Source: Catellatospora sp. KI3
GTDB lineage: Bacteria > Actinomycetota > Actinomycetes > Mycobacteriales > Micromonosporaceae
Assembly: GCF_029948125.1 (NCBI RefSeq)
Contig: NZ_JASAMB010000001.1
Location: forward strand, 744,001 to 808,000
DNA length: 64,000 nt
Direction of reading: 5' to 3'
Shown: in pieces, positions 459-56,807 of the stretch
Layout of the letters: every line of letters starts with the position of its first letter
How positions within the stretch are numbered: position 1 is the stretch's first letter
The notes under the pieces: model-generated
What the model saw: only the letters and a program-made list of their open reading frames with translations
Told to the model about the DNA's origin: nothing
The model's database searches: none
Translations under genes and position numbers: made by a program

Positions 459-522
459 TCGACGCTGGCCTATCCAGAGGACGACTTTCGGAGATTCGTC
501 CTCTAGATAGGCCAGCGTCAAT
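459..522. repeat. Family A palindromic repeat, copy 1
   Basis: The left arm begins TCGACGCTGGCCTATCCAG and continues GAGGACGA. The right arm is TCGTCCTCTAGATAGGCCAG followed by CGTCAAT. The arms are about 26 bp, separated by about 11 bp, and differ at few positions. It lies between the 3' ends of two convergent genes. It could be a bidirectional terminator, a REP-like element, or both. Confidence 0.9.
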
Positions 523-545
523 GCTAAGCGGGGCGCGGGGACCGG

Positions 546-1070
546 TCAGCGGGGGCGAAGCGGGTAGTCGCGCAGGGGTTCCCAGCGGCCGTTGCCGCTG
601 TGCTCGTACCGGGTGAAGTGGTCGACGACGAAGCGGGCCGAGTAGTCCGCCATCCGCTCGAACACGTCGTCCAGCGCCGGGCCGGGCACGTCGTGCCCCA
701 CCGTCACGTGCGGGTGGTACGGATGGGTCAGCTCCCGCGACAGCGGCCCGGTGCGGATCGCGTCGGCCAGGCGCTCGCACTCGGCGATGCCCGCCGCCAG
801 GGCGACGAACACGACCTGGCTGATCGGCCGGAACGTCCCGGTGCCGCGCAACTGGACGGCGAACGGCTCGCTGGCGGCGGCGACCTTGCGCAGCAGGCGG
901 TCGATGCGCCGGTCGAGGTCGGCCGATACCGGCAGCACGGTCGGTCCGAGCAGCGTGACGTGCGCGGGGATCAGCGCCGCCTGCGGGTCGCCGGTCGTGG
1001 CACGGGCCGCGTCGAGTTCGGCGCCCCACGGCTGGGGTATGCCGATGGCGATACCGATGGTCCGCTCCAC
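546..1070 (-). CDS. 2H phosphoesterase / 2'-5' RNA ligase family protein
   Basis: The protein is about 174 residues and carries the two H-x-T motifs of the 2H phosphoesterase superfamily: HVTLLG in the N-terminal half and HPHVTVG in the C-terminal half. Members cleave or ligate cyclic 2',3'-phosphates or 2'-5' bonds in RNA or nucleotides. The substrate of this one cannot be told. I chose the GTG at 1070 because GGAGG lies six bases upstream. An ATG at 1103 would add 11 unlikely residues. It is the last gene of a minus-strand pair with trpS, and repeat copy A1 lies just past its stop. Confidence 0.85.
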   Translation of the reverse strand: MERTIGIAIGIPQPWGAELDAARATTGDPQAALIPAHVTLLGPTVLPVSADLDRRIDRLLRKVAAASEPFAVQLRGTGTFRPISQVVFVALAAGIAECERLADAIRTGPLSRELTHPYHPHVTVGHDVPGPALDDVFERMADYSARFVVDHFTRYEHSGNGRWEPLRDYPLRPR

Positions 1071-1155
1071 GGCGCACCTCCCTCCCACGTCAGGATCGGG
1101 CATGGCACCCGCCGCCGCACCCCGATCGGGGCGACGGCGGCGGTCAGGCGTTCGA

Positions 1156-2184
1156 TCAGCGGGAGGGGGCCAGGAAGCCGATCCGGTCGTACACCGTGGC
1201 CAGGGTCTGGGTCGAGACGGCGCGCGCCTTCTCCGCCCCGATGACCAGCAGCTTGTCCAGCTGGGCCGGGTCGTCGAGGAACTCCTGGGTGCGCTGCTGG
1301 ACCGGGGTGACGAACTCGACGACGACCTCGGCCAGGTCCTTCTTCAGATCGCCGTAGCCCTTGCCGTCGTACGCGGTGACCAGCTCGTCGATGCCGCGGC
1401 CGGACAGGGCCGAGTAGATGGTCAGCAGGTTGCTGACGCCCGGCTTGTTCTCGGCGTCGAAGACGATGTCGCGGCCGGTGTCGGTGACCGCCGACTTGAT
1501 CTTCTTGGCGGACCGGTTCGCGGGCTCCAGCAGCTCGATCAGGCCGTTGGTGGTCGACGCCGACTTCGACATCTTCGCGGTCGGGTCCTGCAGGTCCAGG
1601 ATCTTCGCCGTCTCCTTGACGATGTGCGGCGCGGGCATCGTGAACGTCTGCCCGAACAGGGTGTTGAACCGCTGTGCCAGGTCGCGGGTCAGCTCCAGGT
1701 GCTGGCGCTGGTCCTCGCCCACCGGCACCGCGTCGGCCTGGTAGAGCAGGATGTCCGCGGCCTGCAGGATCGGGTACGTGAACAGGCCGACGCTGGACCG
1801 GTCCGCCCCGGACTTGCTCGACTTGTCCTTGAACTGCGTCATCCGGCTGGCCTCGCCGAACCCGGTGATGCAGCCCATAACCCAGCCGAGCTGCGCGTGC
1901 TCGGGCACGTGCGACTGCACGAACAGCGTGCACCGGCTCGGGTCCAGGCCGAGCGCGAGCAGCTGCGCCACGCTCACGCGGGTACGCTCGCGCAGCAGCT
2001 TCGGGTCGTGCCCGGCCGTGATCGCGTGCAGGTCCACCACGCAGTAGAACGCGTCGTGCGTCTCCTGCAGCCCCACCCAGTTGCGGACCGCACCCAGGTA
2101 GTTGCCCAGGTGGTAGGAGTCGGCGGTCGGCTGGATCCCGGACAGCACCCGGGGCTTGCGGCTGGACGGCACATCGGCAGACAT
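1156..2184 (-). CDS. trpS: Tryptophanyl-tRNA synthetase
   Basis: This cytoplasmic class I aminoacyl-tRNA synthetase charges tRNA-Trp. The HIGH-type motif is YHLGNYLG and the KMSKS loop is intact (TAKMSKSAS). Other family blocks are [20 protein letters not shown] and [17 protein letters not shown]. The length of about 342 residues is normal. I chose the ATG at 2184 ([20 protein letters not shown]) because homologues begin shortly before the VLSGIQPT block. It lies head-to-head with the sigma-factor gene, whose start is about 110 bp away, and the 2H phosphoesterase follows in the same direction. Confidence 0.97.
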
Positions 2185-2294
2185 GCCGACGATTGTCCCA
2201 CCCTGATGATCGCTCCGGAACATCGGGAACCGGCGTCCCGGCTGAGGACTCACTAGAGTCGCCGGACACCGACACGGACACCGCGGGGGAGCTG

Positions 2295-55599: not shown

Positions 55600-56042
55600 C
55601 ACGGCTGCACCACCTGCCACCGGGCCAGCACCTCGTCGCGCCACTGGCCCGTGGGGCGGCTGGTGCGGATCTCGTGCCAGCGCATCACGTAGCGCACCTC
55701 CACCAGTGCGGCCGCGTCCGGGTTGCGGCGGCGGTACGCCTCGACGACCTCGCGCAGGCGGGCCGGGTCGGCGACGAACAGGTCCTGCTGCCCCTCGATC
55801 TCGGCCCGGCGCATCCCGGTCTCCCGCTCGCCGAGGACCACCGTCGCGCCGTGCGCGTCGGTGCCCTCCAGGCGCGGGTCGGGGGCGGGCTCGTTCGGCG
55901 GGTTCACGCCCGCGTACATGCGGAACGGGCCGAAGGGGAAGTGGTCGTCGGAGCCCCAGAGCGTGCCCCCGAGCAGCGCGAACGCGGCGAGCAGGGTGGC
56001 CAGCACCCGGGTCGCGCGCTGCGCGTTGGTCATCGTCTCCAT
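55599..56042 (-). CDS. Single-pass membrane protein coupled to the HTTM protein
   Basis: The 147-residue protein has one N-terminal helix (VLATLLAAFALLGGTLWG) and an outer domain with FPFGPFRMYAG and NPDAAALVEVRYVMRWHEIR. It looks secreted but anchored. Such small partners often precede HTTM proteins in actinomycetes as I recall. No function is known. Confidence 0.75.
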   Translation of the reverse strand: METMTNAQRATRVLATLLAAFALLGGTLWGSDDHFPFGPFRMYAGVNPPNEPAPDPRLEGTDAHGATVVLGERETGMRRAEIEGQQDLFVADPARLREVVEAYRRRNPDAAALVEVRYVMRWHEIRTSRPTGQWRDEVLARWQVVQP

Positions 56043-56258
56043 CGTCGCCAGAGGCTACTTGCAAGGCGTGCCCCATAGCAGCCCCGGGCCCCTAAGTTAC
56101 CGAATGGTAACTATGAGATAAGTCTCGGAGCGCCCTATGTACACACCTTTTGACCTGCGGCAGAATCCTTCAACACAAGCGTGGGCGGCGGGTGCCGGGG
56201 AGGGCCCCGCCGTTCACTGCGTTCCGGGGCGACGACGCCGAGACGGGAGTGACGGACG

Positions 56259-56711
56259 ATGCAGTTCGGGCGCTACTACGAGGAATTCGAGGTCGGGGCG
56301 GTCTACAAGCACTGGCCCGGAAAAACCGTCACCGAGTACGACGACCACCTGTTCTGCCTGCTCACGATGAACCACCACCCGCTGCACCTGGACGCGCACT
56401 ACGCCGCGACGCAGACGGACTTCAAGCGCAACGTGGTGGTCGGCAACTACATCTACTCGCTGCTGCTGGGCATGTCCGTGCCCGACGTCAGCGGCAAGGC
56501 CATCGCAAACCTGGAGGTCGAGTCGCTGCGCCACGTCGCGCCCACCTTCCACGGCGACACGATCTACGGTGAGACGACCGTCCTCGACAAGCGCGAATCC
56601 TCCTCGAAGCCCGACCGCGGCGTCGTGTCGGTCGAGACCCGCGGCTACAACCAGGACGGCACCCTGGTCTGCGTCTTCAAACGCAAGGTGATGGTCCCCA
56701 AGCAGCCGTGA
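56259..56711 (+). CDS. MaoC family hot-dog-fold dehydratase
   Basis: The 150-residue protein begins FGRYYEEFEVGAVYKHWPGK and has the hydratase region LLTMNHHPLHLDAHYAATQT (catalytic Asp/His type) and VVVGNYIYSLLLGMSVPDVS. It resembles the (R)-enoyl-CoA or mesaconyl-CoA hydratase branch of MaoC proteins. The substrate is not clear. A long non-coding lead of about 200 bp precedes the gene. Family A copy 7 follows it. Confidence 0.88.
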   Translation: MQFGRYYEEFEVGAVYKHWPGKTVTEYDDHLFCLLTMNHHPLHLDAHYAATQTDFKRNVVVGNYIYSLLLGMSVPDVSGKAIANLEVESLRHVAPTFHGDTIYGETTVLDKRESSSKPDRGVVSVETRGYNQDGTLVCVFKRKVMVPKQP

Positions 56712-56744
56712 CCGGCCCGCCCGCCGGACCGCCGGCGCCCAGCA

Positions 56745-56807
56745 TAGACAGTGGCCTATCCAGAGGACGATTTTCCAAGATTCGTCTTCCAGATAGGCCA
56801 CTGTCTA
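56745..56807. repeat. Family A palindromic repeat, copy 7 (covarying arms)
   Basis: Outer arms TAGACAGTGGCCTATCCAG and CCAGATAGGCCACTGTCTA. Relative to copy 1, GACGCTGG is now GACAGTGG and CCAGCGTC is CCACTGTC, so each change is matched in the other arm, and TAGAC/GTCTA extends the stem. It lies between convergent maoC and the DCC-family gene. Confidence 0.92.

What the first reader, a model, noticed from the sequence alone, without database searches (positions are those of the whole stretch)
459..56807. Seven copies of a ~65-bp palindromic repeat, always at gene 3' ends
Copies at 459, 9063, 15703, 21541, 32790, 47694 and 56745 share arms of about 26 bp with core GACGCTGGCCTATCCAG and its complement. 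Five sit between convergent genes and two directly follow the stop of one gene. None is in a promoter or a coding region. The spacing of roughly 6-15 kb suggests a genome-wide family. It could be a bidirectional terminator, a REP/BIME-like element or a non-autonomous mobile repeat. I know of no description of this sequence.
Basis: seen in the sequence. Interest (0 to 1): 0.85.

Follow-up and report, generated by a model that had tools for sequence, protein, structure and literature searches.

The report
Mobile-looking DNA hairpins at gene ends
In the soil bacterium genus Catellatospora, up to about a hundred copies per genome of a nearly fixed-length DNA hairpin sit just behind genes, resembling the REPIN family of tiny selfish DNA hairpins but without the enzyme known to spread those.

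Summary
In detail: 7 of 7 copies are at the stated places. They belong to a family with 115 exact-core copies in this 8.2 Mb genome, found in 10 of 11 genus genomes (Catellatospora) and 0 of 239 others of the family. The plan is two conserved inverted ends (ATnGACGYTGGCCTATC) enclosing a variable but self-complementary middle; TGG to CCA is nearly always 49 bp. Of 183 distinct copies in the held genus DNA, 107 lie between convergent genes, 66 in tandem gaps (60 nearer the upstream stop), 3 in divergent gaps, 1 in a gene, 6 at stretch edges. Species often carry the element at the same gene end with different, compensated inner stems. Gains, losses, a likely in-place inversion and half-copies next to full ones also occur. 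All 7 full-length copies found of an IS30-like insertion sequence sit in the middle of such hairpins. No REP-associated transposase (RAYT) match was found in this genome. Best reading: a REPIN-like self-spreading palindrome whose mobilising enzyme is unknown, tolerated or used as a U-less two-way 3'-end hairpin. Termination and mobility are both untested. Two further families of the same design (54 and 44 bp) live in this genome.

The parts
458..522 (.). Family A palindrome, 65-bp core, convergent gap (402 / 546)
   Evidence: A also at the same gap in G009; family B instead in G005, G003, G004, G008
9063..9127 (.). Family A palindrome, convergent gap between 8999(+) and cysN-like 9245(-); not at this gap in the six other genomes compared
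15702..15766 (.). Family A palindrome behind the stop of prs (15809-16789, -); at the same gap in 8 of the other 10 genomes, with three inner-arm types in all
21540..21604 (.). Family A palindrome behind the stop of a DUF4383 gene (21607-22017, -); at this gap in none of the other 10 genomes
32790..32854 (.). Family A palindrome, convergent gap 32746 / rsmI-like 32878; at the same gap in 6 of the other 10 genomes, family C hairpin instead in G005
47693..47757. Family A palindrome, convergent gap 47671 / marC-like 47789; also in G004 and at the marC end in G001
56744..56808 (.). Family A palindrome, convergent gap MaoC-like 56711 / 56861; also in G009, G001, G007, G010, G004
7029..7095 (.). Second palindrome family (B: GTTTCGGGGAAAnTGC ends, 54 bp), tandem gap; bounds approximate
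9145..9211 (.). Family B palindrome beside the A copy in the same convergent gap; bounds approximate
54089..54132 (.). Third palindrome family (C: GAAGGGnCCCTTC ends, 44 bp), tandem gap

Best explanation
Family A is a REPIN-like, non-coding, self-spreading palindrome. Two conserved inverted ends (each about 17 nt, ATnGACGYTGGCCTATC) at a nearly fixed spacing are what an unknown trans-acting DNA enzyme would recognise; the middle need only keep its length and its ability to form a hairpin. Copies are gained and lost by lineage. New copies tend to land next to or inside old ones, so a gene end that has carried one tends to keep carrying one while its inner stem changes. Copies survive almost only behind stop codons, above all between convergent genes, where they do no harm and probably act, or are tolerated, as U-less two-way 3'-end hairpins. 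Shown: the family, its plan, its location, presence/absence differences between species, covariation, half-copies next to full copies. Inferred: mobility by an enzyme, the hairpin as its substrate, targeting of old copies, any effect on transcripts.
For: 115 exact copies in the genome, 0 for the control pattern. In 10 of 11 genus genomes at 1-115 copies each and in 0 of 239 other family members. Near-fixed length: 31 of 31 copies on C1 and 12 of 12 on the tritici contig are 49 bp although 31-76 bp was allowed; in the wider lists a few are 47, 48 or 50. Doublets: of 361 half-sites in the held DNA 327 have a partner by a strict rule; by eye nearly all of the other 34 are full copies with a changed partner arm. 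Four half-copies lie within about 60 nt of a complete copy. Gain and loss: against C. tritici, 633 collinear gaps hold A in both 10, own only 19, tritici only 1. Of 9 own copies in a 136-kb block, 5 are missing from the same gap in both sister species, one of these being present in the other clade. One shared copy matches better as its reverse complement (0.91 against 0.70). Both arms change together: at the prs site 10 of 27 pairs have changes on both sides, covariation score 0.368 against 0.129 +/- 0.022 shuffled and at most 0.105 with slid partners. REPINs in Pseudomonas are described in the same terms: conserved ends, spacer length and hairpin capacity kept, compensatory changes common (PMC3116915, passages).
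Against: No transposase could be tied to it. PF01797 gives no match in this genome; the five genomes without a match have 0, 45, 55, 72 and 115 copies, the six with one 1-85. NF047646 passes its cut-off in 0 of 11 genomes; weaker matches in 4. No excess of target-site duplications. No insertion sequence with these ends seen in the held DNA. None in viral contigs or, with one 91-base query, in plasmids. Many copies are at the same gap in different species, which a freely moving element would not give unless it targets its own old sites. Intermediate inner arms exist (TGATCGA, TAGATGA, ACGTCGA), so stepwise compensated change in place is also possible. Own-only copies were not shown to be younger.
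Confidence: 0.6

Rival explanations
1. The palindrome is primarily a functional two-way transcription terminator or 3'-end-protecting hairpin of U-less type, kept by selection at particular gene ends, its stem drifting by compensated changes.
For: 22 of 31 copies convergent against 17% of intergenic bases (p = 5e-11), and more convergent than families B+C+D together (34 of 79, p = 0.011). Tandem copies lie a median 57 nt behind the stop, 60 of 66 nearer the stop than the next start. U-tailed terminators are rare here (9 of 174 convergent ends, 16 of 235 tandem ends on C1). Hairpins filed as unique also sit at 3' ends (C1: convergent 20 of 87 gaps, tandem 27 of 235, divergent 1 of 129; tritici: 28 of 91, 33 of 250, 3 of 129; the list holds at least one family C member). 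Other strong hairpins are rarer in convergent gaps with A (4 of 30) than without (49 of 148; counts, p = 0.03; one of several uncorrected tests, not significant in either genome alone). Where A is missing, another hairpin often fills the gap (by eye). Same-gap sharing between species.
Against: No U-tract (1-4 T in 12 nt). In tandem copies G-U on the transcribed strand is no commoner than A-C (45 against 56), so pairing in the RNA is not visibly selected. Termination needs neither the conserved ends nor a fixed length. Two of 31 copies on C1 are in divergent gaps.
Confidence: 0.25
2. The copies are binding sites of a chromosome-organising or nucleoid protein at convergent gene ends; the inner stem drifts with the protein's specificity.
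For: Near-fixed distance between half-sites; within this genome position 12 varies independently in the two arms (chi-square p = 0.75); inner arms are largely genome-specific at shared sites.
Against: 0 and 1 perfect copies in two species and the strong convergent bias are not expected of an essential site; no candidate protein was found, and none but transposases was sought.
Confidence: 0.07
3. The perfect pairing is not selected but made by replication template switching inside quasi-palindromes, which copies one arm onto the other.
For: Both arms change together at one site; left arm in three tandem copies in C. tritici; likely in-place inversion.
Against: It does not explain why so many unlinked copies in one genome share the same inner stem, nor the conserved ends and length. 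Within this genome position 12 shows no arm-to-arm association, position 8 only a weak one (p = 0.75 and 0.07).
Confidence: 0.05

Closest known systems
REPINs (REP doublets forming hairpins), Bertels and Rainey 2011, PMC3116915 (abstract and passages read)
   Same: Two conserved inverted ends about 16 bp long, preferred spacing, variable middle that keeps length and pairing with compensatory changes, extragenic, doublets as the unit, several families per genome.
   Different: No RAYT over cut-off in any of 11 genomes and no PF01797 match in this genome; no GTAG tag seen in the ends; strong bias to convergent gene ends; actinobacterium.
CGTC-tagged REPs without a dedicated transposase, Di Nocera 2013, PMC3733652 (part 1 of 8 and passages read)
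   Same: Palindromes mainly between convergent and unidirectional genes, lacking a dedicated transposase.
   Different: There the CGTC tag is unpaired at one end and units are 20-40 bp; here GACG/CGTC is paired and the core is 65 bp. The word actinobacteria does not occur in that text.
IS elements that target REPs (IS1397, ISPpu9 and others), Tobes and Pareja 2006, PMC1525189 (passages read)
   Same: An insertion sequence uses the palindromes as landing sites: 7 of 7 full-length copies of an rve-type (IS30-like) IS sit in the middle of A or B palindromes.
   Different: IS30 is not among the five REP-targeting families named there (IS3, IS110, IS4, IS256, IS5). Its table lists IS1655 with low ratios (2/13, 2/6); that IS1655 is of the IS30 family, and that IS30 prefers palindromic targets, is recalled.
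Bacterial MITEs (Correia/NEMIS, RUP, ERIC), PMC2229807 (passages read)
   Same: Short, non-coding, inverted-repeat, intergenic, many copies.
   Different: Most are said to have TA ends and target-site duplications; no excess of duplications here.

Membership tests
REPIN | Two inverted conserved end sequences at a preferred distance | tested here: met
   49 bp in 31 of 31 (C1) and 12 of 12 (tritici contig); a few 47, 48 and 50 elsewhere
REPIN | Doublet, not single half, is the unit | tested here: met
   327 of 361 half-sites strictly paired, at least four true half remnants by eye; more half or decayed relics in A-poor genomes
REPIN | Hairpin with compensatory changes in the spacer | tested here: met
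   met between species; within this genome alone positions 8 and 12 show no significant arm-to-arm association
REPIN | RAYT encoded in the genome, flanked by the repeat | tested here: not met
   PF01797 no match in own genome; NF047646 0 of 11 genomes over cut-off
REPIN | GTAG tag on each REP | tested here: not met
   no conserved GTAG/CTAC in the alignments (read by eye)
CGTC REP | Unpaired CGTC at one end | tested here: not met
   GACG and CGTC are paired with each other
MITE | Target-site duplication | tested here: not met
   no clear excess of direct repeats at offsets 7-21; 60 own and 166 total copies
MITE | Ends shared with an autonomous IS | tested here: inconclusive
   none in the held DNA; whole genomes were searched for half-sites only in G002, G003, G008, where the facing pair turned out to be one palindrome split by an IS
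Intrinsic terminator | U-tract after the hairpin | tested here: not met
   1-4 T in 12 nt, mostly 1-2, 62 ends
U-less (I-shaped) terminator | Transcripts end at the hairpin | not testable with these tools
   no RNA data

The most novel reading that the evidence does not exclude
A RAYT-free REPIN system in actinobacteria. An unknown trans-acting factor recognises the ends, and the inner stem of the dispersed copies is switched in place, lineage by lineage, at fixed gene ends: concerted evolution of about a hundred unlinked hairpins, with old copies themselves serving as the target of new ones.
Probability: 0.3. Interest if true: 0.8.

Novelty: new variant of a known kind. Interest (0 to 1): 0.55.

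Why it matters
REPINs are tied to one enzyme, the RAYT. A genus with at least three families of the same design and no RAYT over cut-off means either a second kind of mobilising enzyme or a way of homogenising dispersed hairpins without one. The same gene ends carry interchangeable hairpins in a group where U-tailed terminators look scarce, so it also offers a natural series for testing how long U-less hairpins end or protect transcripts.

Tried and rejected
Insertion into the loop of a pre-existing GC terminator: flank complementarity is not above shuffled copies, and empty orthologous gaps look like control gaps (0.43 against 0.42; 17 of the 19 own-only gaps); rejected. RAYT as driver: rejected for this genome. 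A DUF559 gene between two copies at the phoU locus: among 2354 called proteins only its orthologue in G006 matched, so it is one locus; dropped. Orientation by replichore: position -7 leaned one way on C1 (14 against 3) but not on the other contigs; dropped. The terminator scan missed stems that run into the T-run and was redone. Composition around other hairpins: measured from the stem edge, unique hairpins gave 0.07-0.10 before and 0.01 after, but family hairpins measured the same way gave only 0.05-0.07 in convergent gaps, because the windows then cover the elements' own arms; inconclusive. Viral contigs and plasmids: none (one 91-base query for plasmids); the phage collection was not searched. 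Sequence words in papers: 241 papers hold at least one of four words, 20 listed, apparently unrelated by title and abstract start. No paper on such repeats in Catellatospora or Micromonosporaceae came up (listings only; for example 15 of 59 seen for Catellatospora, 12 of 363, 12 of 336).
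Full report
OBSERVATION. The seven copies exist where stated. The window is G000:C1:744001-808000 of an 8.2 Mb, 96-contig genome.

COPY NUMBER AND RANGE. TGGCCTATC-N25..45-GATAGGCCA has 115 copies in the genome and 0 for the reversed control. In the genus the counts are 115, 85, 72, 62, 62, 55, 45, 42, 11, 1 and 0. In 250 family genomes, 10 have it, all from this genus (10 of 11), and 0 of 239 others; 24 genomes of other families in the order have none. The covariance model search stopped at 150 scored candidates, both strands counted, and gives no count.

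ANATOMY. The core is 65 bp: ATnGACGYTGGCCTATC, a variable middle of 31 bases, and the complement of the ends. TGG to CCA is 49 bp in 31 of 31 copies on 808 kb of C1 and 12 of 12 on the C. tritici contig, although 31-76 bp was allowed. Elsewhere a few are 47, 48 or 50. The invariance of GGCCTAT is partly built in by the search pattern. Within this genome the inner arm is mostly YAGRRGACG. Positions 8 and 12 show no significant arm-to-arm association (p = 0.07 and 0.75; 60 copies). The flanks are unusual: to the left C-rich and to the right G-rich for about 70 bp (C-G about 0.25 next to the element against 0.02 in gaps without A), also in tandem gaps; families B and C show it further out. Gaps in the sister species that lack the element look like controls, so the skew comes with, or grows at, the element. 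A comparison with other hairpins was inconclusive. I cannot explain the skew.

LOCATION. Genes were called with my own codon-usage caller, not from annotation. On C1, 31 family A copies: convergent 22, tandem 7, divergent 2, in genes 0 (one degenerate copy at 118978 fell under 'other'). In the held genus DNA, 183 distinct copies: convergent 107, tandem 66, divergent 3, in a gene 1, at the edge of a stretch 6. In tandem gaps 60 of 66 are nearer the upstream stop (median 57 nt) than the next start (158 nt). A is more convergent than the other palindrome families of the genome (22 of 31 against 34 of 79, p = 0.011). Hairpins filed as unique occur roughly in proportion to the number of 3' ends (C1: convergent 20 in 87 gaps, tandem 27 in 235, divergent 1 in 129), as terminators would; that list still holds at least one family C member.

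EVOLUTION. Against C. tritici, 633 collinear gaps: A in both 10, own only 19, tritici only 1, where the own copy is degenerate. The ten shared pairs are orthologous by their centres on average (identity 0.79 against 0.60 for other pairs); one matches better as its reverse complement (0.91 against 0.70), as if inverted in place. In a 136-kb block with 9 own copies, 5 are missing from the same gap in both sister species (one of these is present in G004), 3 are present in G009 but not in tritici, and 1 is in both: both gain and loss. Across the deeper split, gaps are shared more than chance gives (G004: 91 gaps, own 9, other 5, both 4, p = 0.0002; G001 and G007: 49 gaps, 4, 4, 3, p = 0.0009 each; G010: 78 gaps, 7, 4, 3, p = 0.002; G006: 23, 3, 3, 2, p = 0.03). 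Within convergent gaps alone the evidence is weaker (p = 0.0075, 0.015, 0.015, 0.058, 0.25). G003 (92, 9, 1, 1), G002 (28, 3, 0, 0) and G008 (78, 6, 0, 0) add nothing. The inner arms differ from the own ones at every cross-clade shared gap, mostly wholly; G010 at the 56711 gap is intermediate. At prs, 9 of 11 genomes have A, with three inner types; 10 of 27 pairs show changes on both sides, and 90.9% of cells pair against 76.6% shuffled and at most 38.7% slid. G002 and G008 have a plain GC hairpin there (by eye). At the gap near window 24862, G001 and G004, sisters in the tree, have different inner arms inside a similar outer shell, with further types in other species. That fits replacement or stepwise compensated change. 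Half-copies lie within about 60 nt of full copies at four places, as if a new copy had replaced half of an old one. The two A-poor species keep a few decayed copies; one gap seems shared by G002, G008 and G003 by its left flank (by eye).

THE PALINDROMES AS LANDING SITES. Half-site searches in G003 led to a 1.2-kb insertion sequence with an rve domain (the IS30 label rests on a recalled motif). All 4 full-length copies in G003 lie in the middle of A palindromes, and all 3 full-length relatives (83%) in G009 lie in the middle of family B palindromes. More distant, partial matches were not examined. The own genome has no match.

OTHER FAMILIES OF THE SAME PLAN. Family B (GTTTCGGGGAAAnTGC ends) is 54 bp in 26 of 26 matches on C1 and 13 of 13 on the tritici contig; 53 and 55 bp occur once each in the rows shown. 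It has 137 copies in this genome and 1-125 in all ten relatives of the genus, and 0 in 50 genomes outside. Family C is 44 bp in 8 of 8 and 2 of 2 (one strand), has 37 plus 36 matches by strand in this genome and 19 plus 10 in C. tritici, one match in another genus, and none in nine other relatives of the genus.

MECHANISM. The plan (conserved ends, near-fixed length, free but paired middle, doublets, several families per genome, lineage-wise spread) is that of REPINs (PMC3116915, passages). The missing part is the RAYT: PF01797 finds nothing in this genome and matches in 6 of 11 genus genomes without following copy number, and the dedicated model passes its cut-off in 0 of 11, with weaker matches in 4. 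So it works like a REPIN but is not shown to be one. The terminator role fits position and gap-filling but has results against it: no U-tract, and no preference for G-U over A-C on the transcribed strand in tandem copies (45 against 56). The two readings can both be true.

LIMITS. About 1.1 Mb of the own genome and parts of ten relatives were read; orthology counts rest on those. Sites were compared by gap, not by exact base. Several tests were run without correction for number. Absence from print rests in an open-access library, listings only.

Noticed in passing
G003:C1:5775289, 6527660, 5477865, 5438081; G009:C1:3824034, 2362582, C2:1357541 (L254, L266, L269, L271-L278): An rve-type, IS30-like insertion sequence sits in the centre of family A (G003, 4 of 4 full-length copies) or family B (G009, 3 of 3) palindromes.
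   Followed up: partly
window 7029-7095, 9145-9211; 137 places in the genome: Family B palindromes, 54 bp, in all 11 genus genomes, also in the two species that have nearly lost family A.
   Followed up: partly
window 54089-54132; this genome and C. tritici: Family C palindromes, 44 bp, in the genus only in these two sister species, with a single match in another genus.
   Followed up: partly
C1 10577, 197447, 263357 (family D, TCATGATC arms) and C1 64429, 207744, 537654, 676427 (TTGCCGGGCAATCGGG arms): Further small palindrome families in the same intergenic regions.
   Followed up: no
flanks of family A copies, about 70 bp each side: C-rich left, G-rich right composition switch around the palindrome, in convergent and tandem gaps alike, near zero in gaps without it; unexplained.
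   Followed up: partly
L056:6321-7541, L057, L058 (phoU locus): A DUF559 (nuclease-like) gene lies between two A copies in this genome and in G006; a similar pair spacing is seen in G001.
   Followed up: partly
G005:C1 about 81990 (C. tritici): One A copy has its left arm in three tandem copies, suggesting replication slippage in the palindrome.
   Followed up: no
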